Positions 11,081 to 51,065 of a DNA stretch of 64,000 nucleotides are shown in pieces. The stretch covers positions 186,001 to 250,000 of the forward strand of contig NZ_JBBKTT010000001.1 of the NCBI RefSeq assembly GCF_037892425.1, in the 5' to 3' direction. Below the pieces are notes generated by a model. That model made no database searches. It worked only from the letters and a program-made list of their open reading frames with translations, and had not been told where the DNA came from. The translations under genes were made by a program, and so were the position numbers. Source of the DNA: Lacibacter sp. H375 (GTDB lineage Bacteria; Bacteroidota; Bacteroidia; Chitinophagales; Chitinophagaceae). Every line of letters begins with the position of its first letter. Within the stretch, counting starts at the first letter, position 1.

Positions 11081-11920
11081 ATGATGCACAAACTAATATC
11101 CGTTTTCGTTTTACTTGCCCTCTTACCTTTTGCCGGCAATAGCCAGTACTACCAGAAAGACATCCTCAGTACACGCCAAACAATGGAGCAGATCAAACAG
11201 TACAAAGCCAACAAAGTTCGTAAGGTGGTGTTGCAGTCTTTTGAAGGAAGTGGCCAACCTGTTGAACAGTTCATCTGCTTCCAGGAAATAAATCCATCGT
11301 TCAACATCATTAAAACATTTAGTCAAACAACGTCTACCATGCAATCGGTATTGGTGACACAGTTCAATGCAAAAGGACAATTGATACGCAGTGCCGATAG
11401 CAGTAACACAACATTGAATGTTTCGAGCTATACCTACGATGCAACAGGACGATTAGCCGTTGTTGAAAATGTATCGCAGGCATACGCTTATAAAACAAAA
11501 GAAACAGTGCGTCACCAATACACGTATGATTCAAGTGGCCTACCCGTTTCAATGTTGCGCATTAAAAACGGAACCGATACTGCGTTTGTACAATTTAAAG
11601 CTGATGAAAAAGGTAATGTGGGTGAAGAGATCATTACAGCAAAAGGAAAAGAAACGCAAACCTGGTATTACTATTATGATGCACAAAACCGTTTAACAGA
11701 TATTGTACGCTTTAATGATCGTGCACGCCGTTTGCTACCTGATTATGTTTATGAATACAACGAGCAATCTTTGCTTTCACAAATGATCTCAGTGCAAAGT
11801 GGCGGCAGTGATTATGTTACCTGGCGCTATCAATACAATCCACAAGGATTGAAAACAAAAGAGAGTTGTTTCAGTAAACAGAAGCAGTTGATGGGATATG
11901 TGACGTATAGGTATGAATAG
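11081..11920 (+). CDS. Secreted YD-repeat-like protein
   Basis: The ATG at 11081 (a second ATG is at 11084) begins a signal peptide (MHKLISVFVLLALLPFAGNSQ). The mature part carries degenerate RHS/YD-type repeats at about 20-40 residue spacing: YTYDATGRLAVVEN, YYDAQNRLTDIV, YEYNEQSLLSQM and YQYNPQGLKTKE. Such repeats form beta-strand shells in large RHS toxins; here there are few and no toxin domain, so the role is unknown. It is transcribed away from the DUF3667 gene. Its TAG stop lies inside a 7-nt periodic tract. Confidence 0.7.
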   Translation: MMHKLISVFVLLALLPFAGNSQYYQKDILSTRQTMEQIKQYKANKVRKVVLQSFEGSGQPVEQFICFQEINPSFNIIKTFSQTTSTMQSVLVTQFNAKGQLIRSADSSNTTLNVSSYTYDATGRLAVVENVSQAYAYKTKETVRHQYTYDSSGLPVSMLRIKNGTDTAFVQFKADEKGNVGEEIITAKGKETQTWYYYYDAQNRLTDIVRFNDRARRLLPDYVYEYNEQSLLSQMISVQSGGSDYVTWRYQYNPQGLKTKESCFSKQKQLMGYVTYRYE

Positions 11921-11953
11921 GCAATAGTCAATTGTGAATGGGCAATGGTGAAC
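11916..11953. repeat. Heptad-periodic intergenic tract
   Basis: AA recurs at 11916, 11923, 11930, 11937, 11944 and 11951, exactly 7 nt apart, usually as AAT. The first units overlap the stop codon of the upstream gene. Confidence 0.75.
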
Positions 11954-12000
11954 TTAATGCCATTCTAAAAACTAAAACAAAATCTGAAATGGATGTAAAT

Positions 12001-12031
12001 AAAAAAAGCGACGTTAAACGTCGCTTTTTTT
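12001..12031. terminator. Bidirectional rho-independent terminator
   Basis: An A-run, a stem of AGCGACGT with ACGTCGCT, loop TAA, and a T-run form a near-perfect hairpin that works in both directions. It can end the YD-repeat gene (+) and the tRNA-Leu (-), whose 3' end is one nt away. Confidence 0.9.
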
Positions 12032-12032
12032 G

Positions 12033-12118
12033 TGCCCCGGAACGGAGTTGAACCGTTACGACCGTTGCGGGTCACAGGATTTTAAGTCCTGCGTGTCTAC
12101 CAATTCCACCACCGGGGC
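12033..12118 (-). tRNA. tRNA-Leu (UAA)
   Basis: The 86-nt cloverleaf has acceptor arm GCCCCGG paired with CCGGGGC, discriminator A, a D-arm with GGTAGACA, an anticodon stem CAGGA/TCCTG with loop CTTAAAA (anticodon UAA), a long class II variable arm, and a T-loop GTTCAACTC. CCA is not encoded. Confidence 0.95.
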
Positions 12119-12130
12119 TCCAATAGGGTG

Positions 12131-12156
12131 AAAAAAAATCCCGCATGAGAGCGGGA
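12131..12156 (-). terminator. Rho-independent terminator of tRNA-Gly
   Basis: On the minus strand, TCCCGC and GCGGGA form a 6-bp stem with a 6-nt loop, followed by eight U. It lies 6 nt beyond the 3' end of tRNA-Gly, separating it from tRNA-Leu. Confidence 0.85.
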
Positions 12157-12161
12157 CTGTG

Positions 12162-12234
<73 letters not shown>

Positions 12235-12378
12235 TTGTAAAAGAACGATTGGGGTGCAAATGTAAGGGACGTTCAATTAATTGACAAAAAAGAGAGCAAA
12301 AATTTTCTGCATTCGCCTGAAGAAAAGCGATCTCACGACCCGATCACAACTGAAATCCAATGCTAAAACCAATCTTTG

Positions 12379-13905
12379 TCAATTTTTACTCTTATCCCGT
12401 TGTTTCCAGTATGCATTAAAAACCGCCTGCATATCTATGATCAGAACTTTTGCAGCAGTATCGGTTACTGAAAATGCAGGCGACTGAGTTGCTGAAGAAA
12501 CATCTAACAACACTTGTTTGGCTTCCTCCCTGCTTTTTGTTTTCTCGAACACAAGTTGTTTCAGCAATGGTTCAGGAGTCCAGTCTTTTTCAGTTGATGG
12601 ATAGCCAAACTCGTCGGTATAATAATTCACCCCGAATGCCGACTTAAATAAATTCATGGGTGGTCGAACAAAAAATATCGCCTCTGTTCTTTCCTCATAA
12701 TTATTCATGAAGTAAGAACGCAAAGCTGCATACTCATTTTCCAACGGTTTCGAAAAATTGATGTGGTAATTATAAAACGCAACTGCGCAAAAAATAAGAC
12801 CGGCTAATGCTGCCACAATATTTCTCAATCTGTTAGTTCTCAAAAATGAAATAACAAAATCGCAAACCATTACAAATACAAGAAAGTTGAGTGCAAACAT
12901 TGTTCTGTATGAAGCGAAGTTTTCAATCGAAATCATCAACGGCAGATAAGTAAGGATGAGCAATGCAAAACAAATAAGTATATGCCCGATAATCTTCCCA
13001 ACATTCTTTTTCCCGATCCGTATAAACAAACTGATCATCCAAAACAGAATAACCAATGGATAAAAAATCTGCGACAAAATACTTCTTGCATTGTACAGAA
13101 AATTAAAACTAAATGCCTGTGCCAGTGGGTAAGAAAAAAAGAAACTGAGCTTTCCCAAAGGATCAATATTTATGGTGGCTCTTGTACTTGGCTGAACATT
13201 GTACACTTTCAATGAATACCTGAAAAGGAAGTAATACACAACATAACATGCAATATAGAAGCCTACGCCGATAATGATAGTTCTGTCAATTTTTGCAGAT
13301 TTATTTTTTATGAAATACAGGAAGAAGGGCAACAGGAAAAAACCAAATGCCGTTTGGTAAGTAAACAATGAGCACATGGCGAAGAACAGACTTACAGCCA
13401 ATGTGAGAGTAGAAACTTTTAAATAAGTCTCTTTACTGTTTACTTTTCTAAACAGGAGATACCCCGATAAAAATGCTGCAAGTGTGGCTAAAAATATTTC
13501 GGCGCAGGATGCCCATCCAACATAGATAGCAGCAGATAAACTACACGGAATAAATACAACAGACAGTGCCCATACTTTGCCATCGATTTTCAGATCATCA
13601 AACAGTTTTTTTGATAACACTCCATACAACACCATAAACACGACCATGGAGGAAAATGAAAATATCCGCAACCATTTTATATCGCTTACCGAATCCATAT
13701 TGCCAAAGGCGCCATCAATTAACCATCCGGTAATGAGTCGGCCCTGGTTCAGAAACATGATAAAGTTCGATCCATCATTATTGAACCAGAGCTGATGGGC
13801 TTCATCAGTAAATGCATAATCGGCAAAGAATACCGGATAATAGATCAGGAAGCAGGCGAGGATGGCAATGCCAATTATTGTAAACAGGTGTTTTGAAGTC
13901 TGCAT
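12379..13905 (-). CDS. Polytopic membrane protein, possible GT-C glycosyltransferase
   Basis: The 508-residue product has about 10-11 predicted helices. After the first helix (FTIIGIAILACFLIYYPVFF) comes a loop DYAFTDEAHQLWFNN with adjacent acidic residues, the position where GT-C enzymes carry their metal or catalytic Asp. A further loop contains QGRLITGWLID, similar to membrane glucosyltransferases of the GtrII type. The C-terminal 90 residues are soluble. This resemblance is my reading rather than a firm family assignment. It stands alone on the minus strand; the next gene on that strand has its own terminator. Confidence 0.55.
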   Translation of the reverse strand: MQTSKHLFTIIGIAILACFLIYYPVFFADYAFTDEAHQLWFNNDGSNFIMFLNQGRLITGWLIDGAFGNMDSVSDIKWLRIFSFSSMVVFMVLYGVLSKKLFDDLKIDGKVWALSVVFIPCSLSAAIYVGWASCAEIFLATLAAFLSGYLLFRKVNSKETYLKVSTLTLAVSLFFAMCSLFTYQTAFGFFLLPFFLYFIKNKSAKIDRTIIIGVGFYIACYVVYYFLFRYSLKVYNVQPSTRATINIDPLGKLSFFFSYPLAQAFSFNFLYNARSILSQIFYPLVILFWMISLFIRIGKKNVGKIIGHILICFALLILTYLPLMISIENFASYRTMFALNFLVFVMVCDFVISFLRTNRLRNIVAALAGLIFCAVAFYNYHINFSKPLENEYAALRSYFMNNYEERTEAIFFVRPPMNLFKSAFGVNYYTDEFGYPSTEKDWTPEPLLKQLVFEKTKSREEAKQVLLDVSSATQSPAFSVTDTAAKVLIIDMQAVFNAYWKQRDKSKN

Positions 13906-13938
13906 GCAATTAAATCAGGGTTTCAGGTTATTATCTCG

Positions 13939-13970
13939 AAAAAAAAAGCCCTCTTTTCTGCAAAGAGGGC
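13939..13970 (-). terminator. Rho-independent terminator
   Basis: On the minus strand GCCCTCTTT and AAAGAGGGC-type arms (with a short loop) are followed by nine U. It lies 22 nt downstream of the small membrane protein gene. Confidence 0.88.
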
Positions 13971-13991
13971 CGGGTATTATTATAAGAAGAC

Positions 13992-14195
13992 TTATTTATA
14001 CTTTGGATTATAAAGTGTGCTTTCAGGTATTTGCACTTCTGGCTTTCCTTTGTAACGGTAGCTGTACAATTTGTAACATCCCCCCAGCAAAAACGCTGCA
14101 ATACAAAACACCTGAACATAAAACAGGAAGCGGGATGAGGTTACCCAATTGCTGGTGATATCTTTTTGCTTTTCGTCGATGATCTCTTGAGCCAT
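13992..14195 (-). CDS. Small single-helix membrane protein, 67 aa
   Basis: The product has a charged N-terminus (MAQEIIDEKQKDITSNW), one hydrophobic helix with a central Cys (FLFYVQVFCIAAFLLGG), and a short polar tail with Pro and Tyr. I do not recognise the family. The gene has a clear ATG, and a strong terminator follows within 25 nt, which supports it being expressed. It is 51 bp downstream of the glycosyltransferase gene on the same strand and could be its cotranscribed partner. Confidence 0.7.
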   Translation of the reverse strand: MAQEIIDEKQKDITSNWVTSSRFLFYVQVFCIAAFLLGGCYKLYSYRYKGKPEVQIPESTLYNPKYK

Positions 14196-14246
14196 ATTAG
14201 TCGGTTTTTACAGTTGCAAATGTAAGGGATGATGTGTTACAACCCT

Positions 14247-15287
14247 TCAGGCAGGCTTTACAATTTCAGAAAAAATCTTCTTTTTCCGGATGAAATACTG
14301 CCACACAACCGATCCTTGATATACGGTTTTTAAACGGGGATATGCGTTTGAAGAGGGCTGTTTTGGCCCGAATACCCATCCAACAAAGGCAAAATGTGCT
14401 TTTAACACCGCCAGCCAATAGCCGGATTTACCGCTTAGTAATTCTTTCCAGGCAGATACTGCATCTAACCCAACCCGCAACGGAACCTTCCACCATAATT
14501 CAGACCACGGCAGATTTTTGCAGATCATCACGAGGTTGTTACGGAAGTTGAGGAATACTTTTTGGCTGCTGCCGGTTGGTAAGGTGCCACCGCCGACATG
14601 ATACACGACTGATTGTGGACATACATATACTTTATTTCCACCCCGCTGTAATCGCCAGCACAGATCGATCTCTTCCTGGTGGGCAAAAAAGAATTCATCA
14701 AATCCCTTCATCTCCTGAAAACATTGTGACCTGATAAACAGTGCAGCACCACTTGCCCAAAAAACAGGTACTGCATTGTTGTATTGTCCGTTATCTTTCT
14801 CCAGCACATCAAACACACGGCCACGTGAAAAAGGATAACCCAATGTGTCGATCCACCCTCCACTTGCACCCGCATATTCAAATGTATTTTTCTGATGAAA
14901 AGAAAGAATTTTTGGCTGACAGGCTGCAATGCTTTTATCTGCTTCCATCAACTCAATTACAGGTTCTATCCAGTTTGTTGTTACTTCCACGTCACTGTTC
15001 AGTAACACATAATAATCAGCCTTTACCTGTTGCAGAAAAAAATTATAACCTTTTGCAAATCCATAATTCTCTTTACTGGTTAATATCTCAACTGAAGGAA
15101 ATGTTTGTTGTAAGAACTGCACCGAATCATCTGTTGATGCATTATCAGCAACGATCACCTGCAGATTGGTATACGTTGATGCCAATACAGAAGGCAGAAA
15201 CTGTTGCAGGAAATTTCTTCCATTCCAGTTAAGAATAACAACAGCAACAGGCGGGAGGGTTTGCAAGTGTGGTAAATATTTTTTCAA
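14247..15287 (-). CDS. Family 2 glycosyltransferase
   Basis: The 346-residue product has a GT-A fold: VAVVILNWNGRNFL at the N-terminus, VIVADNASTDDSV for nucleotide binding, YYVLLNSDVEVTTNW containing the DxD-like site, and FFFAHQEEIDLCWRLQRGG as the acceptor/catalytic region. This pattern matches rhamnosyltransferase-like (WbbL) enzymes acting on polysaccharide or lipid-linked acceptors at the cytoplasmic membrane face. Donor and acceptor are not predictable. It starts divergently from the histidine kinase, 39 bp away. Confidence 0.9.
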   Translation of the reverse strand: MKKYLPHLQTLPPVAVVILNWNGRNFLQQFLPSVLASTYTNLQVIVADNASTDDSVQFLQQTFPSVEILTSKENYGFAKGYNFFLQQVKADYYVLLNSDVEVTTNWIEPVIELMEADKSIAACQPKILSFHQKNTFEYAGASGGWIDTLGYPFSRGRVFDVLEKDNGQYNNAVPVFWASGAALFIRSQCFQEMKGFDEFFFAHQEEIDLCWRLQRGGNKVYVCPQSVVYHVGGGTLPTGSSQKVFLNFRNNLVMICKNLPWSELWWKVPLRVGLDAVSAWKELLSGKSGYWLAVLKAHFAFVGWVFGPKQPSSNAYPRLKTVYQGSVVWQYFIRKKKIFSEIVKPA

Positions 15288-15326
15288 AAATAGCGGTTGA
15301 GAGTGAAACCTTGTCTAAATTAGGGC

Positions 15327-16475
15327 ATGCTTGGTCAATATTTTAACTGGCGAACATTACTGGCAATGATTGCCATTGGCATTGTAACCGGTACCATTTT
15401 TTATTCGAACTATCTCGCCGATAAAATTGCTGTTGATGAACGTTTGAAAGTGGAACAATGGGTTGAGGCCGGTAAATTCCTGATCATGGCACCAATTGAT
15501 GCTGACACGAAACTCCCTTCGCTCATTCGAAATGAACAGAAATCGATTCCTATTATTGAAACAGATGAAAAGGATAGTATTGTTAGTTATATCAATATCG
15601 ACAGTGCAAAAATTGCAAACAATCCCGGTTATCTCGCTTCCAGGTTAAAAGAATTTAAAGGTCAGAATCAACCTATCATTCTTGAAATAAGTAAAGACCC
15701 TTTACTCATCAATAAATATTATTATGGTCATTCTGCATTGCTGCAACAGGTACGTTACTACCCAATGGTTCAGTTGTTTATTGTGGCGCTCTTTATCATC
15801 ATTACCATTTTCTCGTTGCAGGCAAGAAATAAATCGACCCAAAACCAGGTATGGGCTGGTATGGCTAAAGAAACGGCACATCAGTTGGGAACACCCGTTT
15901 CATCGTTACAAGGTTGGGTGGAAATGTTGAAAGAAGAAAACGCACAATCGCAAATTGCAACAGAGATCGAAAAAGATGTGCAGCGCCTGCGATTGGTGAG
16001 CGATCGCTTTGGCAAGATCGGCAGCATACCACAATTAGAACCGAATAATGTGGTAAGGCAGGTAGAAGAAATGGTGGAATATATCCGCAAACGGGCAACC
16101 GGAAAAGTACACCTGGAAGTGAAGAAGAATAGAGCGGATATGATCGTAGCAATTTCTCCCCCGCTCTTCGATTGGGTAATTGAAAACCTGCTCAAAAATG
16201 CACTTGATGCCATGGATGGAAAGGGAAATATTACAGTTGATATGCATGAGGAGGAACGAACCATCATCATTGATATCACAGATACAGGCAAAGGCATTGC
16301 ATCGCAAAACATCAACCGAGTTTTTAAACCGGGCTTTACCACCAAGAAACGTGGCTGGGGCTTGGGCTTGTCGCTGAGTAAACGTATAATAGAACAATAT
16401 CATAAAGGACAACTGTACGTAAAACACTCTGAGCCTGGAAAAGGCACTACATTCAGGATTGTGTTGAAAAAGTAG
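15327..16475 (+). CDS. Membrane sensor histidine kinase
   Basis: The 382-residue product has an N-terminal helix (LLAMIAIGIVTGTIFYSNYL), a periplasmic stretch to about residue 145, and a second helix (PMVQLFIVALFIIITIFSL). The H box AKETAHQLGTPVSSL has H185, followed by N box ENLLKNALDAM, G1 DTGKGI and G2 GWGLGLSLSKRI. No response regulator is next to it. The HQLGTP form of the H box recurs in Bacteroidota kinases. The TAG stop is followed after five bases by a 7-nt periodic tract. Confidence 0.9.
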   Translation: MLGQYFNWRTLLAMIAIGIVTGTIFYSNYLADKIAVDERLKVEQWVEAGKFLIMAPIDADTKLPSLIRNEQKSIPIIETDEKDSIVSYINIDSAKIANNPGYLASRLKEFKGQNQPIILEISKDPLLINKYYYGHSALLQQVRYYPMVQLFIVALFIIITIFSLQARNKSTQNQVWAGMAKETAHQLGTPVSSLQGWVEMLKEENAQSQIATEIEKDVQRLRLVSDRFGKIGSIPQLEPNNVVRQVEEMVEYIRKRATGKVHLEVKKNRADMIVAISPPLFDWVIENLLKNALDAMDGKGNITVDMHEEERTIIIDITDTGKGIASQNINRVFKPGFTTKKRGWGLGLSLSKRIIEQYHKGQLYVKHSEPGKGTTFRIVLKK

Positions 16476-16480
16476 GCGGA

Positions 16481-16515
16481 AGTCAATAGTCTCAAGTGTT
16501 CAGTAGTTAGTAACA
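16481..16515. repeat. Heptad-periodic intergenic tract
   Basis: AGT recurs at 16481, 16488, 16495, 16502 and 16509, exactly 7 nt apart, with variable intervening bases. It begins five bases after the stop of the histidine kinase. Confidence 0.8.
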
Positions 16516-16584
16516 CTTTACAACCAGCAGCCCTGCAAATAAATTTGATTGAATGGGTGCAGCATTTTACATTTGCACCCCGAT

Positions 16585-16668
16585 GCCCGGGTGTTGAAAT
16601 TGGTAGACAAGCCACTTTGAGGTGGTGGTGTTCGAAAGGACGTGCTGGTTCGAATCCAGTCCCGGGCA
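16585..16668 (+). tRNA. tRNA-Leu (GAG)
   Basis: The 84-nt class II cloverleaf has acceptor arm GCCCGGG with CCCGGGC, discriminator A, a D-arm with GGTAGACA, anticodon stem CCACT/GGTGG with loop TTGAGGT (anticodon GAG), a long variable arm with a TTCGAAAGGA loop, and T-loop GTTCGAATC. CCA is not encoded. Confidence 0.93.
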
Positions 16669-16675
16669 CGATTAC

Positions 16676-16703
16676 AAAAAGCGATTCAATAGAATCGCTT
16701 TTT
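16676..16703. terminator. Bidirectional rho-independent terminator
   Basis: A 12-bp stem (AAAAAGCGATTC with its complement) and a 4-nt loop are flanked by A and T runs. It can end tRNA-Leu on the plus strand and the long fructan operon on the minus strand, whose last gene stops 20 nt away. Confidence 0.9.
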
Positions 16704-16723
16704 GTTATTTCAAAGTGCATCTT

Positions 16724-20068: not shown

Positions 20069-20074
20069 ATAAAA

Positions 20075-22561: not shown

Positions 22562-22589
22562 TCTTTTTTTACAAAGCAAGCCCTACTAA

Positions 22590-39511: not shown

Positions 39512-39538
39512 AAACCCCTCCGTAAAGCAGAGGGGTTT
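39512..39538. terminator. Bidirectional terminator (ftsZ and membrane protein gene)
   Basis: A 9-bp stem AAACCCCTC / GAGGGGTTT with a 9-nt loop is flanked by A- and T-runs on both sides. It is the only strong terminator downstream of ftsZ, so it should end the long dcw transcript. Confidence 0.88.
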
Positions 39539-39627
39539 TACACAACTAATAAAAATCAACGATTCTAAAAATTCACCTTACAACTATAAAACAAAGATTT
39601 CTCTATGTTGAAACATAGAGCAAGTCA

Positions 39628-41487: not shown

Positions 41488-41526
41488 AACTTTCCGGGTT
41501 TGCTGGGTTAGTAAGTTTTTTATTGA

Positions 41527-41593
41527 AGTCGGTAGCCGATAGTTGTCAGTTGATAGCCCTATACTATTTACTAAGGACTATCGGCTGCAGACT
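41527..41593. repeat. Mirrored heptad tract, about 30-bp imperfect hairpin (ftsA-ftsZ)
   Basis: AG recurs at 41527, 41534, 41541, 41548 and 41555; CT recurs at 41564, 41571, 41578, 41585 and 41592. The halves are symmetric about 41560, so AG in one arm faces CT in the other. A perfect 9-bp core AGCCGATAG / CTATCGGCT (41534-41542, 41578-41586) lies in register. Arms 41527-41556 and 41564-41593 pair at about 22 Watson-Crick and 3 G-U of 30 positions. Confidence 0.85.
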
Positions 41594-41597
41594 GTAT

Positions 41598-42998
41598 TTA
41601 AAGCTTGCGATCTTCTTCTTCGTTAAACAAATCAATCAGCCCGTCTTTAATGCTGTCCATAAATCCTTTCAGGCTCTTGCGTTTTTTAACACGCACCACA
41701 TGCGTTTCAGATTGCTCATCGTATACATTCACTACTTCTGCAACCGGTTCTTCTTTTATTTCAATTCCTTTCAACTTGTTCTGTGTGTTCTCGAATACAT
41801 TATAGCCTTTCATGATCAAACCGATACATGTTGAATACATTGGCTTAGCCAACTCATCAATATGACCCGGAGCCAAATGTTCGTTCGGGAAACCGATACG
41901 TGCATTCAATCCTGTTACATATTCTGTTAACTGAATAAGATGTTTCAATTGTGAACCACCACCTGTTAACACAATACCACCATTGAGCATGCGGTTATCT
42001 AAACCAACCTGCTTTAAATGATAGGTTACAAAATCCATGATCTCACTCATACGTGCCTGGATGATGTGCGCAAGATTTTTTACACTGATCTCTTTCGGCG
42101 CCATTCCACGAATGCCAGGAATAGTGATGAACGCATTTGATTTTGCTTCATCAGCCAAGGCACTACCAAACTGCACTTTCATTTGTTCTGCCTGTGTACG
42201 CAATACACCTAATCCCATTTTAATATCGTTGGTAATATTCTCACCACCGAATGGAATAACTGCAGTATGTTTTAAAATACCTTCATAAAAAACTGCGAGA
42301 TCAGTTGTGCCACCACCAATATCAACAATGGCAACACCTGCTTCAAGATCATGCTCGCACATAACAGCAGCAGCAGATGCCAAAGGTTGCAATACAAGAT
42401 CTCTTACTTTCAAATTACTCTTCTCAACACTGCGATTAATATTGCGGATCGCATTTTTATCGCCGGTGATGATGTGGAAGTTTGCTCCAACTTTCACGCC
42501 ACTATAACCAATTGGGTTAGGAATGTTTTGAAAGTTATCCACGGTGAATTCCTGTGGTATCACATCAATGATCTGATCACCTGCAGGAATATATGTTTTG
42601 TATTGATCGCCGATGAGCTGATCAATTTCACGTTGCGCAATTTCTTCTTCGTTGTTCTGACGAACAATATCGCCACGTGTTTGCAATGATTTAATGTGAT
42701 GGCCTGCAATACCAACGTATACTTCGTTGATCTCAAGATTTGGGTTGCTTGCATAGCAATTTTGTAAAGCCTGTTCAATAGCTTTAATTGTTTGATCGAT
42801 GTTTAACACCATGCCGTGTTGCACACCGCTGGAGTTTGCACGACCAAAGCCAAGAATTTCAAGTTTGCCGAACTCATTCTTACGTCCGGCAATAGCAGCG
42901 ATCTTGGTTGTACCAATATCCAATCCCACGATGATGGGGTTGTTATTGACAGCCTGTGCGCTCATTGCTGTTCCGTTTGTGGGTGATTCCGTTGTCAT
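41598..42998 (-). CDS. ftsA: Cell division protein FtsA
   Basis: The ATG at 42998 gives 466 residues; the frame runs further upstream without family similarity. The actin-like fold has phosphate-binding VGLDIGTTKIAAIAG and IVDIGGGTTDLAV, plus the GVVLTGGGSQL-type loop (GGIVLTGGGSQL). The C-terminal KSLKGFMDSIKDGLIDLF is the expected amphipathic membrane-targeting helix. It anchors FtsZ. It lies between ftsQ and ftsZ in the canonical order. A heptad tract fills most of the spacer after its stop. Confidence 0.95.
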   Translation of the reverse strand: MTTESPTNGTAMSAQAVNNNPIIVGLDIGTTKIAAIAGRKNEFGKLEILGFGRANSSGVQHGMVLNIDQTIKAIEQALQNCYASNPNLEINEVYVGIAGHHIKSLQTRGDIVRQNNEEEIAQREIDQLIGDQYKTYIPAGDQIIDVIPQEFTVDNFQNIPNPIGYSGVKVGANFHIITGDKNAIRNINRSVEKSNLKVRDLVLQPLASAAAVMCEHDLEAGVAIVDIGGGTTDLAVFYEGILKHTAVIPFGGENITNDIKMGLGVLRTQAEQMKVQFGSALADEAKSNAFITIPGIRGMAPKEISVKNLAHIIQARMSEIMDFVTYHLKQVGLDNRMLNGGIVLTGGGSQLKHLIQLTEYVTGLNARIGFPNEHLAPGHIDELAKPMYSTCIGLIMKGYNVFENTQNKLKGIEIKEEPVAEVVNVYDEQSETHVVRVKKRKSLKGFMDSIKDGLIDLFNEEEDRKL

Positions 42999-43155
42999 AG
43001 TTGTATGTTGTTTTTTAGTTGTGTGAACTTTTTTGTTTTTATGGTTATCAACTGTTGTGCGTGTTTGTTCATCGTTGCGTCGCACTCTTGTACGGCTTTC
43101 TTACATTCATCTTCAACCCACCCCTTTCATCATTCCTTAGTGCAACACTCTGTCG

Positions 43156-43171
43156 CCCCTCCAGGGAGGGG
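43156..43171. repeat. GC-rich palindrome between ftsQ and ftsA
   Basis: CCCCTCC-AG-GGAGGGG is a 7-bp inverted repeat with a 2-nt centre, standing out from AT-rich surroundings. No T-run follows on the minus strand, so termination is unlikely. Confidence 0.6.
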
Positions 43172-43177
43172 ATAAAC

Positions 43178-43212
43178 ACTCCTCACTCATTACTCATCAT
43201 TCATCACTCATT
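43178..43212. repeat. Heptad tract overlapping ftsQ stop
   Basis: ACT recurs at 43178, 43185, 43192 and 43206, with ATT in phase at 43199. It reaches into the last codons of ftsQ, placing several TGA triplets around the stop. Confidence 0.8.
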
Positions 43213-44385
43213 CTCTTTCTTCTTCATCACTGCTTTAGGTTGTTTTTTCACAGGTTGGCTCTTCGCCTCATTCAACACACTTTCTTCTTCGGTCTTAGGC
43301 TTAGGTTTTTGTTCAGTTGGTTTTGGATTCTGTACAATGGTTTTTACTGTAGGGGTAGGGAGTTGGTTTTTCATCGCATTGCGATTTTCATTTGTCTCTG
43401 GTTTCACAGTAGCGGACTTTAAAACGGGCTCTGCGGATGTTGGTTCTCTCTTATAGGTCCCGGAGGTAAGCAAACTGTTTGGGTCTTGGTTTATAAGTGG
43501 TTTTTCAGTTGTTAATGTTGTGTCGCTGTTTATATAACTTGTATCAATAGCCCTGCTCACTTCATAATTATTTTGTTCTACCACAAAACTTTTGAACAGG
43601 CTTACACTGTCTCTTCTAACAGCCACCAGTTGTTTATCATAACGCACATCTAATGCGCTGTAATAATTCCAGCCGGTTTTATTCATGATGTTTTTATAAA
43701 ACAACAGCAGGCGATTAAACTTCTGCTCCATTTTCTCTGTATTGCCAAATTGAATAAGATGATTCCCAAGCTTGGGTACCAATTCAAATTCATAGTTGTT
43801 GATGTTCACCTGATCAACCTGTGCCATCCAGAAATCATTCTTTATTAAGTAGTGGCCCATTTCTTTCACCTGCTCCTGTAACAAACTATCTTTCTTTTTT
43901 GCAACCGTTGTTTCATTCGGGAAAGATGTAAACACAGGTACACGTGCAACCTGGTCGTTGGTGATCGGCAACTGTTCGCCCATGTCATCAATATAAAACG
44001 ACTGACCATTTACCATAAACACTCTAGCCACAGGTTCACGTTCTGTTATATCAGCATGCAGTACATCATTATTATCAAAGAACAATTCTGCATTACGTAT
44101 CCAGAGATTACGTTCCAGCAGTTCTTCCAGCTGTTGCAGATCAAATGTTTTAACAGGCGCACCTTTCATCAGATCAGGACGACCACCGGAGATCGTATTC
44201 AGTATTTGCTTTTTACTCACATACTCCGTTCCATCAACTCCTGTAATATTTACAATAACATCTTTGCAGCGCTTTCCGTTTTTATTACGGGCAGCAGCAA
44301 CCAGCAGCACAATTGTTGCCGTACAAACCACCGTCCACATGACAGTGAGTACTAACTTCTTCCACGAAAATTTCTTACTGCTCAT
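43204..44385 (-). CDS. ftsQ: Cell division protein FtsQ
   Basis: The 393-residue product has one N-terminal helix (KLVLTVMWTVVCTATIVLLVAAA), a POTRA-like segment (IVNITGVDGTEYVSKKQIL), then the beta domain of FtsQ/DivIB (LWIRNAELFFDNNDVLHADITEREPVARVFMV). The last 110 residues are a Lys/Pro/Thr-rich tail unusual for the family. It bridges FtsL to periplasmic division proteins. It is five nt after murC. Confidence 0.9.
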   Translation of the reverse strand: MSSKKFSWKKLVLTVMWTVVCTATIVLLVAAARNKNGKRCKDVIVNITGVDGTEYVSKKQILNTISGGRPDLMKGAPVKTFDLQQLEELLERNLWIRNAELFFDNNDVLHADITEREPVARVFMVNGQSFYIDDMGEQLPITNDQVARVPVFTSFPNETTVAKKKDSLLQEQVKEMGHYLIKNDFWMAQVDQVNINNYEFELVPKLGNHLIQFGNTEKMEQKFNRLLLFYKNIMNKTGWNYYSALDVRYDKQLVAVRRDSVSLFKSFVVEQNNYEVSRAIDTSYINSDTTLTTEKPLINQDPNSLLTSGTYKREPTSAEPVLKSATVKPETNENRNAMKNQLPTPTVKTIVQNPKPTEQKPKPKTEEESVLNEAKSQPVKKQPKAVMKKKENE

Positions 44386-44390
44386 TATAA

Positions 44391-45761: not shown

Positions 45762-46852
45762 TTCTTTATCAACTTCAATACTTCTGTTGCAATCACTGTA
45801 TCGGCATCTGCCACACCCAGTTTTGCAATATGTTGTTTCAATTCATTTTGCTTTGCTTCATCTTTTGCCAATGCAATGATGCTGCTTACTAATTTTTCTT
45901 TTGCTTCACTGTCCTTCACCATCAATCCGGCATGTTTCGCAACCAAATGTTTAGCGTTTACTGTTTGGTGATCTTCAGCTGCATGCGGATAAGGAACAAA
46001 CACTGCCGGCTTTGCCACCAAACAAATCTCAGCAATGGCCATTGCACCTGCTCTAGAGATCACTACGTCAGCGGCAGAGTAAGCATGTTCCATTTGACTG
46101 ATAAATTCATTCACCCACACATGGTATTTTCCTGCTGCTCTTGCCTTTGCTGTTTCAGCATATATTTTCCCTGTTTGCCAAATGAGTTGCAGATTATTCA
46201 TTTCAAATTCATCAAGCCCGGCATCAATTGCTTCGTTAATACTCCTTGCACCCAAACTTCCGCCAACCACGAGCACCGTTTTCTTTGTTGTTTCCAAACC
46301 AAAGTATTTTAACCCTTCTTCCTTCGTTATAGTAGAAAGCGAAATAGAAGCACGAACAGGATTACCGGTGATCATGATCTTTTGTGCCGGAAAAAACTTT
46401 TCCATCCCATCGCTGGCTACAAATACTTTTGTTGCTTTCTTTCCCAACATAATATTCGCCTTTCCTGCAAACGAGTTGCTTTCATGAATAAAGGATGCAA
46501 TGCCTTTACCCTGGGCAAAACGCAACACCGGAAAACTGGAATAGCCGCCAACTCCTATCACTGCGTCTGGTTTAAATTGGTTGATAATCGATCGCACCTG
46601 TACAAAGCTTCGTATCAACTTAAACGGCAAACCCACATTTTTTATCAAAGAACTTCTGTTAAAACCTATAATATCTATACCCTTAATATCATAACCTGCC
46701 TGCGGCACTTTTTCCATTTCCATTCTGCCTTTTGCTCCAACAAACAATATCTCAGCATCGGGCTGTTGTTTTCTAATCGCATTGGCAATTGCAACGGCCG
46801 GAAAAATATGGCCGCCAGTTCCACCACCTGCAAGTATGATCTTTACACTCAT
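45758..46852 (-). CDS. murG: MurG: UDP-GlcNAc transferase to lipid I
   Basis: The 364-residue product has the GT-B fold. The N-terminal GGGTGGHIFPAVAIANAI is the lipid I site, followed by HESNSFAGKANIML. The C-terminal domain has GGSLGARSINEAI and ISRAGAMAIAEICLV for UDP-GlcNAc. It makes lipid II at the cytoplasmic face of the membrane. It overlaps both ftsW and murC by four nt. Confidence 0.96.
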   Translation of the reverse strand: MSVKIILAGGGTGGHIFPAVAIANAIRKQQPDAEILFVGAKGRMEMEKVPQAGYDIKGIDIIGFNRSSLIKNVGLPFKLIRSFVQVRSIINQFKPDAVIGVGGYSSFPVLRFAQGKGIASFIHESNSFAGKANIMLGKKATKVFVASDGMEKFFPAQKIMITGNPVRASISLSTITKEEGLKYFGLETTKKTVLVVGGSLGARSINEAIDAGLDEFEMNNLQLIWQTGKIYAETAKARAAGKYHVWVNEFISQMEHAYSAADVVISRAGAMAIAEICLVAKPAVFVPYPHAAEDHQTVNAKHLVAKHAGLMVKDSEAKEKLVSSIIALAKDEAKQNELKQHIAKLGVADADTVIATEVLKLIKK

Positions 46853-48090
46853 GCCAACTCTTCTTTAACGTTCTCTGCTTTCCCTTCTGCATCTTCCACA
46901 TTTCTCGCCACACTTAAAATGATACCGATGGATAAACAGGTAAACAAAAAGCTACTACCGCCCATGCTCACCAATGGAAGCGTTACACCTGTTACCGGGA
47001 ACAATCCCACATTCACCGCCATGTTTGTCATGGCTTGTATCACGAGTGTAAAACTCAACGCCAATGCAAGGAATGCACCAAAAGCATACGGACACTTTCT
47101 AAATAATCTTATACTCCTGAACAGAAATACCATATAGATAAACACGATGAATGCCGCACCAATTATTCCATACTCTTCTATAATAATTGCATAGATATAA
47201 TCCGAATAAGGATGTGGTAAGAAATTGCGTTGCTCACTGTTGCCTGGCCCTAATCCAAACACACCACCTTTTGCAACTGCGATCTTTGCCTGTTGTACCT
47301 GGTAAGGCGCTTCACCTTTTCCGGCATATACAAAATCCTGCACACGCTTGATCCATGTTGGTATGCGTCCTGCTGATAAAAGAGCCGGCAACTCTTTTGT
47401 TTTTCCTTCTTCTTTATCGTAGTAGGCACTGGCAATACCAATCAGGATAATTACCGGTACCATTACAGCCGCAGCAACCAACGCAATATGCTTGAAACTT
47501 ATACGACCGATAAACAACAACAACATACTTGTTGCACCGGTGAGCAATGCGGTTGAAAGATTCGCAGGTGCAATTAGTCCGCAGATGACCACAATAGGTA
47601 TCATCATTGGAATAAATCCTTTTTTGAAATCTTTGATGACATGTTGCTTCTTTGATAACAATCTCGACAGGTACATGAACAAAGCCAACTTGGCAATGTC
47701 GGAGGTTTGTACTGTAAGATTGATGATGGGCAACTTAATCCAACGGCTGCCATCGTTGATCGTTGCACCAAAGAACAATGTATAAATGAGTAACAGGATG
47801 GAGATGTAAAACAACATCTTCGCTACTCTTGAATAAATGGTATAGTTTACCCTGTGCGCAAAGTAAACAATGATAATACCCAACGAAATAAATGCGATCT
47901 GTTTAAAAAGATAAACGTAGGTATTGCCTTTGTATAATTTATAAGCCAAAGAGTTGGTGGCGCTGTACACTACCAATAAACTCACCAGCGACAATACAAC
48001 CACGATTGCCCAGATCACTTTATCGCCACGGGTTTTATCCCGAAGCCCTGCCGCTGAAAATTTAGATGATATGTTTGCGATTTGACTCAT
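46849..48090 (-). CDS. ftsW: Peptidoglycan polymerase FtsW (SEDS family)
   Basis: The 413-residue product has ten predicted helices and the SEDS signatures VYSATNSLAYKLYKG, GPGNSEQRNFLPHPYSDYIYAIIIEE in the extracytoplasmic loop, and VTLPLVSMGGSSFLF. It polymerises lipid II with FtsI during septation. A heptad tract lies between its start and the murD stop. Confidence 0.93.
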   Translation of the reverse strand: MSQIANISSKFSAAGLRDKTRGDKVIWAIVVVLSLVSLLVVYSATNSLAYKLYKGNTYVYLFKQIAFISLGIIIVYFAHRVNYTIYSRVAKMLFYISILLLIYTLFFGATINDGSRWIKLPIINLTVQTSDIAKLALFMYLSRLLSKKQHVIKDFKKGFIPMMIPIVVICGLIAPANLSTALLTGATSMLLLFIGRISFKHIALVAAAVMVPVIILIGIASAYYDKEEGKTKELPALLSAGRIPTWIKRVQDFVYAGKGEAPYQVQQAKIAVAKGGVFGLGPGNSEQRNFLPHPYSDYIYAIIIEEYGIIGAAFIVFIYMVFLFRSIRLFRKCPYAFGAFLALALSFTLVIQAMTNMAVNVGLFPVTGVTLPLVSMGGSSFLFTCLSIGIILSVARNVEDAEGKAENVKEELA

Positions 48091-48105
48091 TTCGTTTTGC
48101 TTCTT

Positions 48106-48133
48106 CGTATGTCTTACTCCGTACCTCGTACTT
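48106..48133. repeat. Heptad tract between ftsW and murD
   Basis: TA recurs at 48108, 48115, 48122 and 48129, exactly 7 nt apart, just downstream of the murD stop codon. Confidence 0.7.
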
Positions 48134-48137
48134 CTTT

Positions 48138-49484
48138 TTACAGATCTCTTACTGCTTGTTTAAACTGGTTACCCCTGTCTTCATAATTTTTAAACAGATC
48201 GAAACTTGCACAAGCCGGGCTCAGCAATACTGCATCACCTTTTTCTGCAAAATGGTAAGCTGCTCTTACTGCATCTTCCGCACTGGTGGTATTCACGATC
48301 AATGAAACTGTATCACCAAATGCTTCGTGAATTTTTCTGTTGTCTAACCCAAGACAAACAATTGCTTTTACTTTTTCCTTCACCAGTTCTTTTAATACTT
48401 CGTAATCATTTCCTTTATCAACACCACCAAGAATCAGAATGGTTGGATGCGTCATACTCTCCAACGCATACCAGGTAGAATTGATGTTGGTTGCTTTACT
48501 GTCGTTGATGTATTCAACTCCTTTTACCATTGCCACCATTTCCATTCTATGCTCAAGGCTTTCGAATGTGGTAACGGCCTCCCTGATCTTTTCTTTGCGG
48601 ATACCTAAAGTAGCCGCTGCAATACCTGCTGCCATGGTGTTGTACTGGTTGTGTTTACCCTTGATCTTAAAATCGTCTACGCTCATTGTTACTTTGTCGT
48701 CGTTCACTGCAATCGTCATGGTGCCGTCTTTGATGAAAGCGCCTTTTTGTGGTTCCTGTTTCATGGTGAATGGTAATGGGGTTGATTGGAGAGTAAGTTT
48801 TTTTAAATACTTTACTGTAACCGGGTCATCGGCACAGTAAATGAAAAAATCGTCTTTCGTTTGGTTATTGAGGATCTTAAATTTTGCGTTGATATAATTT
48901 TCAAACCTGTATTCGTACCTGTCTAAATGATCTTCGGTAATATTGGTGAGTATAGCGATCTCCGCTTTGAACTCCTTAATATCATCGAGCTGAAAACTGC
49001 TGAGCTCAGCGATATATACTTCCTTTGGATCAATAGCAACTTGTTTTGCAATGCTGATACCGATGTTACCCACCAATGCGCAATCCAATCCTGCATGTTT
49101 GCAAATGTGATACGCTAATGATGTGGTAGTGGTTTTACCATTGCTTCCGGTAATTGCAACGATCTTGCTGTTACCTTTAAAACGATATGCCAACTCCACC
49201 TCACTGATTACAGGAATGCCTTGCTTGCGTATCTTCTTCATCATTTCACTCTTCTCAGGAATGCCGGGGCTCTTTACAATTTCATCTGCACTCAGAATTT
49301 TTTCTTCGCTGTGCATGCTCTCTTCAAACTCAATTCCGTACTCCTTCAACTCTTCTTTGTAAATGTTTTTGATAGGTCCTGCATCGCTCACAAATACATC
49401 ATACCCTTGCTTCTTTGCAAGAATAGCAGCGCCTGCTCCACTTTCGCCGCCACCAAGTATGTAACATTTGTGTGCCATGTTCAT
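48138..49484 (-). CDS. murD: UDP-N-acetylmuramoylalanine--D-glutamate ligase MurD
   Basis: The 448-residue product adds D-Glu to UDP-MurNAc-L-Ala. It begins with CYILGGGESGAGAAILAKKQG, has the P-loop ITGSNGKTTTTSLAY and the substrate segment NDSKATNINSTWYALES. A second ATG at 49478 may be the true start. The 230-bp spacer to mraY is the longest in the cluster and contains the hairpin tract. Confidence 0.96.
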   Translation of the reverse strand: MNMAHKCYILGGGESGAGAAILAKKQGYDVFVSDAGPIKNIYKEELKEYGIEFEESMHSEEKILSADEIVKSPGIPEKSEMMKKIRKQGIPVISEVELAYRFKGNSKIVAITGSNGKTTTTSLAYHICKHAGLDCALVGNIGISIAKQVAIDPKEVYIAELSSFQLDDIKEFKAEIAILTNITEDHLDRYEYRFENYINAKFKILNNQTKDDFFIYCADDPVTVKYLKKLTLQSTPLPFTMKQEPQKGAFIKDGTMTIAVNDDKVTMSVDDFKIKGKHNQYNTMAAGIAAATLGIRKEKIREAVTTFESLEHRMEMVAMVKGVEYINDSKATNINSTWYALESMTHPTILILGGVDKGNDYEVLKELVKEKVKAIVCLGLDNRKIHEAFGDTVSLIVNTTSAEDAVRAAYHFAEKGDAVLLSPACASFDLFKNYEDRGNQFKQAVRDL

Positions 49485-49488
49485 TTCA

Positions 49489-49540
49489 AGTTTCCAGTTG
49501 CCTGATAAATGTTACCGGTAACCGGAGACCGGTAACATTT
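49489..49540. repeat. Heptad tract with 13-bp perfect inverted repeat (murD leader)
   Basis: GT (twice GA) recurs at 49490, 49497, 49504, 49511, 49518, 49525 and 49532. Within it 49507-49519 and 49528-49540 are a 13-bp perfect inverted repeat (AAATGTTACCGGT and its complement) with an 8-nt loop. It ends five to eleven nt before the murD start, depending on which ATG is used. Confidence 0.85.
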
Positions 49541-49714
49541 TCTTTTTTGGTTTTTCTACTTTTTTTATTTCCAATAGAGAAATAAAAAAGGCTCTTCACA
49601 AGTATGGGTTAGTACAGGATCTCAGAGGTGCTACATAGATGGTTCTCTTCTAAGTCTTACATAGGATTGGTTGGGTAAGGATTTAAAACCAGGGGTGGTT
49701 TTTCAATAACCTCT

Positions 49715-50992
49715 TTAACGGATTTTGAGTGTTACAATCGCCAGCACCACACAAAGAATCGTTACGATCCAAAAGCGGGTGACGATCTTACTCTCATGAA
49801 ATCCTTTTTTCTGATAATGATGATGCAACGGACTCATTAAAAATATCCTTCTGCCTTCACCATATTTTCGCTTTGTGTATTTGAAGTAGCCAACCTGCAG
49901 CACCACACTCAGGTTTTCTACTAAAAACACTCCGCAGAAAATGGGTATCAATAATTCTTTTCTTACTAAAAATGCTAATGATGCAATTACACCGCCTAAC
50001 ATTAAACTACCGGTATCGCCCATGAACACTTGTGCCGGATAAGAGTTGTACCAGAGAAAACCGATACATGCACCAACCATTGCAGCAATGAAAATGGATA
50101 ACTCACCAATTCCGGGTATATATAAAATGTTGAGATAATCGGCTAAGCGAATGTTACCACTTGCATAAGCGAATATGCCCAGACATATTCCAATTACCGC
50201 CGATACACCTGTTGCTAAACCATCAATCCCATCTGTAATGTTTGCACCGTTTGATACTGCAGTTACAATAAACACGACGATCATTACATACAATAACCAT
50301 GTGGCACCACGGATTGCTTTCGGCAATAGTTTTGAATAATTAAATTCATGTCCCTTCACAAATGGAATGGTGGTGATAGGTCCATCTGCTTTAATCATGA
50401 TTTTTTCTTCGCCATCCAGCTTTGGTTTCCTTGTTTGTGCATCCGCTGGTAGTTCTGTTCCTGTAAACTCACGGTAGGCACTCACAGAATCATTAAACAT
50501 TAATGTTGTTGCAACTGCTACACCTAATACAACTTGTCCTAATACTTTAAACCAACCTGCCAATCCATCTTTATCCCCTTTCTTATAATTAACACCTTGC
50601 TCCTGTGCCAAACGTTTTGCACGGAGTTTCAAATAATCATCAATGAAGCCGATCATCCCCATCCATATTGTTGCAAACAACATGAGCAGGATATACACTT
50701 TGCTCACATCTGCTAACAATAAAGTAGGAACTACAATCGCAAGGATGATGATAAGACCACCCATTGTTGGTGTTCCTTTCTTTTGTTGTTCACCTGCTAA
50801 TCCAAGATCACGAACCGTTTCACCAACCTGCCGTTTGCGCAGATAGTTGATGAGTTTTTTACCGAACACAGTTGAAATGATCAGTGATAACAATACAGCC
50901 AGCATCACCCTGCTGGTGATGAACTGGAACAGATTGTCGCCCGGGAATTTTATCCCGATACTGTTCAACCAATCAAATAAGTTCTTTAACAT
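49715..50992 (-). CDS. mraY: Phospho-N-acetylmuramoyl-pentapeptide transferase MraY
   Basis: The 425-residue product is polytopic and makes lipid I. Motifs are GTPTMGGLIII near the N-terminus, NGANITDGIDGLATGV and VFMGDTGSLMLGGV with the catalytic Asp residues, and SPLHHHYQKKGFHESKIVTRFW near the C-terminus. It is longer than the roughly 360 residues of proteobacterial MraY because of an inserted polar loop (residues ~155-230). It follows murE. Confidence 0.95.
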   Translation of the reverse strand: MLKNLFDWLNSIGIKFPGDNLFQFITSRVMLAVLLSLIISTVFGKKLINYLRKRQVGETVRDLGLAGEQQKKGTPTMGGLIIILAIVVPTLLLADVSKVYILLMLFATIWMGMIGFIDDYLKLRAKRLAQEQGVNYKKGDKDGLAGWFKVLGQVVLGVAVATTLMFNDSVSAYREFTGTELPADAQTRKPKLDGEEKIMIKADGPITTIPFVKGHEFNYSKLLPKAIRGATWLLYVMIVVFIVTAVSNGANITDGIDGLATGVSAVIGICLGIFAYASGNIRLADYLNILYIPGIGELSIFIAAMVGACIGFLWYNSYPAQVFMGDTGSLMLGGVIASLAFLVRKELLIPIFCGVFLVENLSVVLQVGYFKYTKRKYGEGRRIFLMSPLHHHYQKKGFHESKIVTRFWIVTILCVVLAIVTLKIR

Positions 50993-51006
50993 GCATTCAG
51001 TTTTTA

Positions 51007-51065
51007 TTGTGAATCGTCAATGGTGAATGGTAAAGCCCACTCATCACTGATTACTCATCACTCAT
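51007..51065. repeat. Mirrored heptad tract (murE-mraY)
   Basis: GT recurs at 51009, 51016, 51023 and 51030; ACT recurs at 51039, 51046, 51053 and 51060. The halves are symmetric about 51035, so GT faces AC. It includes the murE stop codon at 51062-51064. Pairing between arms is weaker than in the ftsA-ftsZ tract. Confidence 0.8.

What the first reader, a model, noticed from the sequence alone, without database searches (positions are those of the whole stretch)
11916..51065. Dispersed intergenic tracts with strict 7-nt periodicity but different sequences
At least seven short spacers carry a phased 2-3 nt core every 7 nt: 11916-11953 (AA), 16481-16515 (AGT), 41527-41593 (AG then CT), 43178-43212 (ACT), 48106-48133 (TA), 49489-49540 (GT), and 51007-51065 (GT then ACT). 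5303-5338 is a weaker case. The intervening bases differ between tracts, so a similarity search would miss them. All but one (49489) begin at or within about ten nt of a stop codon. Heptanucleotide short tandem repeats are known in heterocystous cyanobacteria; I do not know a description for this phylum. Possible roles are transcript 3'-end processing, spacer expansion by slippage, or a protein phasing site. Coding sequence nearby does not show the pattern.
Basis: partly seen in the sequence, partly recalled or inferred. Interest (0 to 1): 0.85.

Follow-up and report, generated by a model that had tools for sequence, protein, structure and literature searches.

The report
Seven-base repeat ladders at stop codons
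In this group of bacteria some genes are followed by a short stretch that repeats every seven bases, in step with the gene's own stop signal and often folding back into a hairpin, which looks like an unusual, fast-changing form of a known repeat class rather than chance.

Summary
Spacers of this Chitinophagaceae genome carry a 7-nt periodicity that replicates outside the window and is not seen in genes, shuffles or an E. coli tract control. With tools it sharpens. (1) Tracts favour gene 3' ends and are in register with the stop codon: its triplet recurs at +7/+14/+21 (0.47 vs 0.30), rung stops match the gene's stop type (53 of 73, expected 26.5), and stop positions are conserved between two species (19 of 20). 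(2) Many continue into a reverse-complement arm; in 68 of 79 such hairpins the 5' arm has more G than C. (3) Periods 7 and 8 form them, five other tested periods hardly. (4) Some tracts are replaced as blocks between species. (5) Stems do not favour G.U over A.C; 1 of 68 has a U-tail. Best reading: a DNA-level repeat-birth process seeded at the stop codon, a degenerate relative of known bacterial heptanucleotide repeats. Lack of 7-nt length steps and weak decay of identity with distance speak against simple slippage; a function is not excluded.

The parts
5303..5335 (+). period-7 tract starting on the TAA stop (5302-5304) of the + gene, in register with it (TAA TTGCCAA TTGACAA CATTCTA ATTTCGA); convergent spacer, abuts the stop of the - gene 5340-9095
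   Evidence: score 8.0, p 0.0035; listings (in one search below the ladder threshold in G000, above it in G003)
11916..11952 (+). period-7 tract over the TAG stop (11918-11920): TAG GCAATAG TCAATTG TGAATGG GCAATGG; the relative G003 has a short TGA-based stretch here, below threshold
   Evidence: score 12.6, p <0.0005
16472..16512 (+). period-7 tract in register with the TAG stop (16473-16475): TAG GCGGAAG TCAATAG TCTCAAG TGTTCAG TAGTTAG
   Evidence: score 7.3, p 0.007; (below the ladder threshold in G000, above it in G003)
41518..41602 (.). period-7 hairpin between ftsA and ftsZ; arms 41518-41556 and 41564-41602; overlaps the ftsA TAA stop (41598-41600, - strand) but is not in 7-nt register with it; by eye, eight species show three different hairpin families here
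43177..43211 (-). period-7 tract over the TGA stop of gene 43204-44385: TGA TGAATGA TGAGTAA TGAGTGA
   Evidence: score 15.3, p <0.0005
48090..48136 (-). weak period-7 tract between the murD stop (48138-48140) and ftsW, not in 7-nt register with the stop; not seen in G003, other species differ in length and sequence
49484..49570 (.). period-7 tract with inner hairpin 49507-49519 / 49528-49540 in front of murD; the exception, not at a stop codon
   Evidence: score 17.1, p <0.0005
50996..51070 (.). period-7 hairpin between a Mur ligase gene (murE by its place in the cluster, inferred; TGA stop 51062-51064, - strand) and mraY; arms 51010-51030 and 51037-51057; TGA GTGATGA GTAATCA GTGATGA
   Evidence: score 18.9, p <0.0005

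Best explanation
These are degenerate 7-nt (less often 8-nt) repeat ladders born at the DNA level on the stop codons of genes. Shown for period 7: tracts favour the stop side of spacers; the stop codon is often itself a rung; the repeat starts within about one unit of it and steps 7 nt downstream; many tracts continue into a complementary arm so that the spacer becomes a hairpin with a C-poor 5' arm; the stop's position is conserved also where the ladder differs; some ladders are replaced as a block, and some spacer versions are shared between species whose flanking genes are more distant. Inferred: a copying error with a preferred step of 7 or 8 nt (polymerase slippage or short templated re-synthesis) duplicates the stop-containing stretch, which is tolerated only beyond the coding boundary; snap-back copying (quasi-palindrome template switching) then makes the second arm; short recombination tracts move finished cassettes between strains. 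The C-poor 5' arm may simply follow from rungs that resemble TAA/TAG/TGA, which contain no C. On this reading the tracts need no function of their own.
For: Period 7 stands out: 74 tracts in 65 of 757 spacers of 1.25 Mb against a mean of 4.45 (maximum 9) in 20 shuffles and 3-31 for periods 5, 6, 8-13. Annotation-free inverted-repeat tracts: 57 at period 7 (4 of them in called genes), 24 at period 8 (3 in called genes), 2-6 at periods 5, 6, 9, 10, 11. Anchoring: 44 of 46 tandem-gene period-7 hairpins start within 10 nt of the upstream stop (random mean 25.5, maximum 35 of 5000); 55 of 68 in the spacer-based set (random 29.3), against 37 of 181 non-periodic hairpins (random 26.8). Register: with the stop not used for detection, 126 of 1638 gene ends have a ladder and the stop triplet matches 0.47/0.46/0.47 at +7/+14/+21 against 0.30 at other offsets; rung stops match the gene's stop type 53 of 73 times (expected 26.5). 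Same stop position in 19 of 20 G000/G003 orthologues with a ladder in either, 202 of 217 without. DNA rather than RNA pairing: G.U 85, A.C 100 in 68 oriented stems. Block replacement: ftsA-ftsZ G000/G003 flanks 0.93/0.93, spacer 0.63; G003/G001 flanks 0.92/0.88, spacer 0.95.
Against: Length differences between orthologous spacers are not multiples of 7 (5 of 111) and clean 7-nt steps are rare in the alignments. Identity falls little with distance when tracts are picked by another lag (picked by 14: 0.63 at 7, 0.59 at 21; by 21: 0.46 at 7, 0.45 at 14), more like fixed columns than stepwise duplication; picked by lag 7 it falls 0.59, 0.54, 0.45 at 14, 21, 28. Words recur between loci (39 of 2080 locus pairs share a 14-mer, column-permuted mean 1.0, maximum 3), which independent births do not predict, although shared stop seeds would raise it. 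Anchoring is not shown for period 8 (17 of 27, random 13.3, maximum 19), and long non-periodic hairpins also lean to the stop (21 of 71, random 11.8, maximum 20). Different tracts at the same spacer (4 of 9 and 5 of 9 non-conserved cases, several of them borderline at 0.70-0.73 identity) could mean selection for having one.
Confidence: 0.5

Rival explanations
1. The ladders are kept by selection as gene-end insulators: extra stop codons 7 nt apart cover all three frames, and the hairpin shields or separates neighbouring messages in an operon.
For: Stops at +7/+14/+21 in 36/35/40 of 153 ladder ends against 6-23 at other offsets from +3 to +39 (where the stop was part of the stretch used for detection); period-7 5' arms hold 201 stop triplets against 165 (sd 8.2, maximum 189 of 500) after column permutation, TGA 88 against 49.5; 46 of 53 hairpins lie between genes of one direction (tandem spacers are 514 of 757 in the own sample); by eye, hairpins are present at the ftsA-ftsZ spacer in all eight species compared although three families occur.
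Against: About three quarters of rungs at a given step are not real stops, only partial rhymes such as AAG, CAA, GAA; period-8 arms show no stop excess over column permutation (59 vs 61.4); no G.U preference; 1512 of 1638 gene ends examined lack a ladder.
Confidence: 0.22
2. The hairpins are very small mobile elements copied between loci by an enzyme in trans, with a preference for stop codons.
For: Families recur across loci; presence/absence and block replacement between relatives; patchy occurrence of one word in 18 of 296 genomes and 9 of 140 genera of the phylum.
Against: No Y1 (RAYT-type) transposase found in the genome (other enzymes not searched); no fixed element sequence, ends or target duplication noticed by eye in the alignments.
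Confidence: 0.13
3. They are RNA signals for transcript 3' ends (intrinsic or Rho-dependent termination, or processing).
For: Position right after stops; the 3' arm is G-poor, as Rho sites are (the latter recalled, not tested).
Against: U-tail in 1 of 68 period-7 hairpins (26 of 181 non-periodic); several lie inside the dcw cell-division cluster; no G.U bias; Rfam at gathering scores finds only three tRNAs in the window.
Confidence: 0.1
4. Chance or low-complexity composition.
For: Single tracts such as 48106-48133 are weak.
Against: Replication in 386 kb and 800 kb outside the window, in G003 and in 80 Chitinophagaceae loci; shuffles flat; E. coli K-12 150 kb: 0 period-7 tracts in 82 spacers.
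Confidence: 0.02

Closest known systems
Degenerate heptanucleotide repeats of the cyanobacterial tRNA-Leu(UAA) intron, P6b stem-loop (Class 1 and Class 2; PMC3488679 passages; Costa 2002 recalled, not read)
   Same: [quoted passage not shown] copy-number variation; alternative classes at one place
   Different: one locus inside an intron; here many intergenic loci, registered on stop codons, with many families
TAACTGA heptamer direct repeats of Beggiatoaceae, cyanobacteria and five Bacteroidetes (PMC4679880, abstract and passages)
   Same: 7-nt direct repeats, intergenic, patchy over phyla; [quoted passage not shown] other heptamer repeats are mentioned in two Bacteroidetes spacers
   Different: one exact word, in the main genome mostly just before start codons; related heptamers rarely repeated; only one indirect repeat
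G-rich heptamers GGGAATC / GGGGA(T/C)T of Xanthomonas and Nostoc (PMC4692102, passages)
   Same: heterogeneous 7-nt units, intergenic, vary between close species at the same genes, some inverted
   Different: one G-quadruplex-type family; no stop-codon register in the passages seen
Long simple sequence repeats of prokaryotes (Mrazek 2007, not read; as cited in PMC4679880 and PMC4692102)
   Same: excess of unit length 7; slippage proposed
   Different: repeats defined by unusual length of tandem units; here the units are degenerate and most of the window's tracts escape a repeat finder

Membership tests
heptanucleotide simple sequence repeats (LSSR/STRR) | unit length 7, tandem, intergenic, in excess of chance | tested here: met
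heptanucleotide simple sequence repeats (LSSR/STRR) | near-identical neighbouring units, found by repeat finders | tested here: not met
   TRF finds 2 of the 8 window tracts; lag-7 identity 0.68
heptanucleotide simple sequence repeats (LSSR/STRR) | length variation in whole units between strains | tested here: inconclusive
   between two species 5 of 111 length differences are multiples of 7; strains of one species were not available
cyanobacterial P6b heptad hairpin | degenerate heptads pairing in one stem | tested here: met
   (sequence level; no RNA evidence)
cyanobacterial P6b heptad hairpin | lies in the intron of tRNA-Leu(UAA) | tested here: not met
   window tracts lie between protein genes; Rfam finds only three tRNAs in the window
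REP/RAYT elements | Y1 transposase in the genome | tested here: not met
   PF01797: 0 matches in G000; positive in 5 of 14 control genomes
intrinsic terminators | hairpin followed by U-run | tested here: not met
   1 of 68 period-7 hairpins in tandem spacers
TAACTGA repeats | the word TAACTGA in direct repeat | not tested
   no dedicated search made
integron attC sites | cassette array with integrase and conserved core sites | not tested
   considered only for its anatomy (recalled); the flanking window genes include the conserved dcw cluster

The most novel reading that the evidence does not exclude
Gene ends in this lineage are continually rewritten by a process that reads the stop codon as its seed: whatever stop a gene uses, a ladder of 7-nt (or 8-nt) rungs rhyming with that stop can be laid down behind it and mirrored into a hairpin with a fixed polarity. 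This would be either an unknown mutational mechanism tied to the end of translation (for example in the untranslated, R-loop-prone DNA just behind the last ribosome) or an unknown all-frame translation-stop and insulator device.
Probability: 0.3. Interest if true: 0.8.

Novelty: new variant of a known kind. Interest (0 to 1): 0.64.

Why it matters
Heptamer repeats have been noted in several bacterial groups, and the papers seen here offer only the size of the polymerase contact as a guess for the number 7 (PMC4679880, PMC4692102, passages). Here the repeats come with three new handles: register with the stop codon, restriction to steps of 7 and 8, and a strand-symmetric hairpin polarity. Each can be tested in a culturable relative, so the origin of heptad repeats becomes an answerable question. 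The tracts also account for part of the fast turnover of gene-to-gene spacers in this genus and warn against reading such hairpins as terminators.

Tried and rejected
Rejected: (a) chance; (b) intrinsic terminators (U-tail 1 of 68); (c) RNA structure under pairing selection (G.U 84 vs A.C 96, 85 vs 100). The only positive control for that test, U-tailed non-periodic hairpins (G.U 8, A.C 3), is too small to prove its power; (d) RAYT/REP elements (no Y1_Tnp); (e) ladder as an artefact of reading frames running into repeats: stop positions are conserved in 19 of 20, and the repeat fades within about one unit upstream of the stop (triplet match 0.38 at -7 but also 0.39 at -8); (f) polarity as a product of start-codon constraint: it also holds in the few convergent (5 of 5) and divergent (6 of 6) period-7 hairpins (period 8: 1 of 1 and 3 of 5).

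Led nowhere or mixed: blastn of one hairpin and of a typed heptad array against plasmids gave no match (BLAST masks low-complexity queries), so cyanobacterial DNA was not examined. Anchoring of convergent tracts is not significant (8 of 11 within 5 nt of a stop, random 6.4, P 0.18), and for period-8 hairpins it is not shown (17 of 27, random 13.3). Inverted repeats in tract spacers exceed the shuffled 95th percentile in 48%, but control spacers do so in 26% as well. Conserved columns are more unequal than random mutation gives (variance 0.034 vs 0.025) but are not contiguous (p 0.75). Period-8 arms show TGA excess but no general stop excess. The tool's control for the pattern search (the pattern read backwards) is not a clean control for the ATGAGTA variant, because that word is its own mirror image. 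One search ended in a script error after its main tables; the last table (7-mer words per locus) was not obtained.

Limits: genes were called by my own simple script, not by a standard gene finder. Tracts in which one base exceeds 60% were dropped throughout (not from the shuffles). Some sets share ancestry (G000/G003), so the 80 loci and G017 are the better replicates. Only spacers up to 1200 nt entered the hairpin sets; long pairs (over 500 nt, 4 of 35; over 1500, over 900) and, pairs under 78% aligned identity were dropped. In one search 194 of 289 spacers could be paired. Output was cut, so not every tract was seen.
Full report
What was checked. The window is G000:C1:186001-250000 of a 5.08-Mb, 3-contig genome. 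A SusC/RagA protein and the nearest MurD relatives place it in the Chitinophagaceae, Bacteroidota; relative G010, of the same genus, has a contig of the same length (3,092,511) as MAG UBA1931. All eight reported tracts have a lag-7 signal in their spacer (p from <0.0005 to 0.011; 48106-48133 taken alone p 0.09).

Is it more than chance? Match rates between bases k apart were computed over all spacers called by my own gene finder. Window: z 4.7, 4.2, 2.4 at lags 7, 14, 21. The 386 kb around it (220 spacers, 38 kb): 6.3, 5.1, 4.4, with one dinucleotide shuffle at -2.1, 1.1, 0.0, and genes with the codon period and no lag-7 excess. A further 800 kb (503 spacers): 7.2, 7.3, 4.3; by spacer type, lag 7 is 9.9 in tandem, 2.5 in convergent and 1.5 in divergent spacers of the 1.25 Mb. 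A tract detector at threshold 8.5 gives 74 period-7 tracts in 65 of 757 spacers, shuffles 4.45 on average (maximum 9 of 20), other periods 5:5, 6:6, 8:31, 9:3, 10:12, 11:15, 12:3, 13:5. E. coli K-12 (150 kb, 82 spacers) gives 0 at period 7.

Where in the tree. Strong in the same genus: G003 40 tracts per 400 kb against 1.7 in shuffles, G009 6, G001 8, G010 5, G013 3 in 60-100 kb each (shuffles 0.0-0.3). Strong in G017 (same family): 14 tracts at period 7 and 10 at period 8 in 80 kb. About shuffle level in G045 (1 vs 0.3) and G054 (2 vs 2.0), same family; 0-4 tracts in six samples of the same class (shuffles 0.0-2.3); 4, 0 and 0 in three samples of other classes of the phylum (shuffles 1.3, 0.0, 0.7). 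Pooled spacers of 80 Chitinophagaceae loci: z 9.8, 7.0, 10.8. One word family (ATGAGTRATGAGTRATGA) occurs in 18 of 296 genomes and 9 of 140 genera of the phylum. So the trait is patchy.

Anatomy 1, hairpins. Many tracts continue into a reverse-complement arm. Without using gene calls, inverted repeats overlapping a periodic tract number 57 at period 7, 24 at period 8, and 2, 4, 6, 4, 6 at periods 5, 6, 9, 10, 11. In 79 period-7 hairpins the 5' arm has more G than C in 68 and fewer in 9; in 34 period-8 hairpins 30 and 4; in 300 non-periodic hairpins 115 and 141. For periods 7 and 8 together the split is 35:4 in G000, 17:3 in G003, 25:4 in the 80 loci, 12:0 in other genus members and 9:2 in G017. 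A hairpin reads the same on both strands, so this polarity does not depend on gene direction.

Anatomy 2, stop codons. 29 of 51 tandem-spacer tracts start within 10 nt after the upstream stop (random mean 15.3, maximum 26 of 2000). 44 of 46 tandem-gene period-7 hairpins do (random mean 25.5, maximum 35 of 5000). In the spacer-based set 55 of 68 do (random 29.3), against 37 of 181 non-periodic hairpins (random 26.8); period-8 hairpins 17 of 27 (random 13.3, maximum 19) and long non-periodic ones 21 of 71 (random 11.8, maximum 20). With at least 35 nt of free spacer, 28 of 45 period-7/8 hairpins lie near the stop and none near the start. The gene's stop codon is often itself a rung. With detection limited to sequence after the stop, 126 of 1638 gene ends have a ladder; the stop triplet matches 0.47, 0.46, 0.47 at +7, +14, +21 (0.30 elsewhere), and upstream 0.38 at -7, 0.39 at -8, 0.33 at -14; for 22 period-8 ends 0.47, 0.48, 0.42 at +8, +16, +24. 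Where a rung is a stop codon it is of the gene's own type in 53 of 73 (expected 26.5). The stop position is the same in G000 and G003 for 19 of 20 genes with a ladder in either, and 202 of 217 without; several of the eleven 'G003 only' ladders have a weaker counterpart in G000. In the window the tracts at 5303, 11916, 16472, 43177 and 50996 are in register with the stop; those at 41518 and 48090 are not, and 49484 is not at a stop. Examples of ladder and stop changing together: ftsA has TAA with one hairpin in G000 and TGA GTGATGA GTGAATA GTAATGA in G003, while by my reading of the alignment FtsA ends Asp-Arg-Lys-Leu in all eight species; gene 227 has TGA TATCGGA TGTATGA in G000 and TAA GTACGAA GTTAGAA GTACGAG in G003.

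Turnover. Of 28 G000 tracts in paired spacers, 19 are conserved (at least 75%) in G003, 4 face another period-7 tract and 5 none; in reverse 24, 5 and 4 of 33; several non-conserved cases are borderline (0.70-0.73); of 114 control segments 102 are conserved. Spacer and flanks disagree: ftsA-ftsZ flanks G000/G003 0.93/0.93 with spacer 0.63, G000/G009 0.91/0.87 with 0.91, G003/G001 0.92/0.88 with 0.95; at 50993-51061 G009/G011 flanks 0.81/0.81 with spacer 0.96. This fits exchange of short blocks between species; selection on the spacer is not excluded. Aligned bases in tracts differ at 0.146 against 0.099 outside.

Mechanism. Two facts argue for a DNA-level origin: stems show no preference for G.U over A.C on the transcript strand (85 vs 100), and U-tails are nearly absent (1 of 68). 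The register with the stop, rungs that rhyme without being real stops in about three quarters of cases, and the restriction to steps of 7 and 8 point to a copying error with a preferred step, seeded where coding constraint ends; snap-back copying would give the second arm. That chain is inference. Against it: length differences are not multiples of 7 (5 of 111), identity decays little with distance, and words recur between loci (39 of 2080 pairs share a 14-mer; column-permuted 1.0), though shared stop seeds contribute to that. A functional gene-end insulator (period-7 5' arms do hold more stop triplets than column permutation gives, 201 vs 165) and a mobile hairpin remain rivals.

Literature. 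Heptamer repeats are known: TAACTGA (PMC4679880, abstract and passages), GGGAATC/GGGGATT (PMC4692102, passages), the paired degenerate heptads of the tRNA-Leu intron (PMC3488679, passages) and a survey of sequence patterns in prokaryotic genomes (PMC4060949, passages). Mrazek 2007 was not read. In the listings of eight searches of this open-licence library I saw no description of ladders in register with stop codons; subscription papers are not covered.

Noticed in passing
window 49590-49714: About 125 nt of non-coding sequence between the mraY stop and the murD-side tract looks well conserved by eye over the eight genus members; it may be a structured leader or small RNA. Not measured separately; Rfam gives no hit there at gathering scores.
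   Followed up: no
G017 stretch L213-L216: A strong period-8 class (GTTGATTG, GTTCACTT, CAACCAAT types) forms the same kind of hairpin as the period-7 tracts.
   Followed up: partly
G000:C1:163438-165480 (L011 about 3438-5480): A 2-kb stretch with no genes called by my script holds several period-7 tracts, unassigned reading frames of about 150-160 aa and, by eye, a segment of roughly 70 nt present twice; it may be a decayed mobile region.
   Followed up: partly
G302 (same class, another family), contigs C46 and C64 among others: 39 matches of the ATGAGTA-type pattern, the listed ones being overlapping steps of perfect tandem arrays.
   Followed up: no
G000:C1 near 757550 and near 2299097: Hairpins with arms ACCACAGAGACACAAA and ACCACAGAGACACGGAGGCACAGAG and an 8-nt period; I recall similar words from several phyla, which no call tested.
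   Followed up: no
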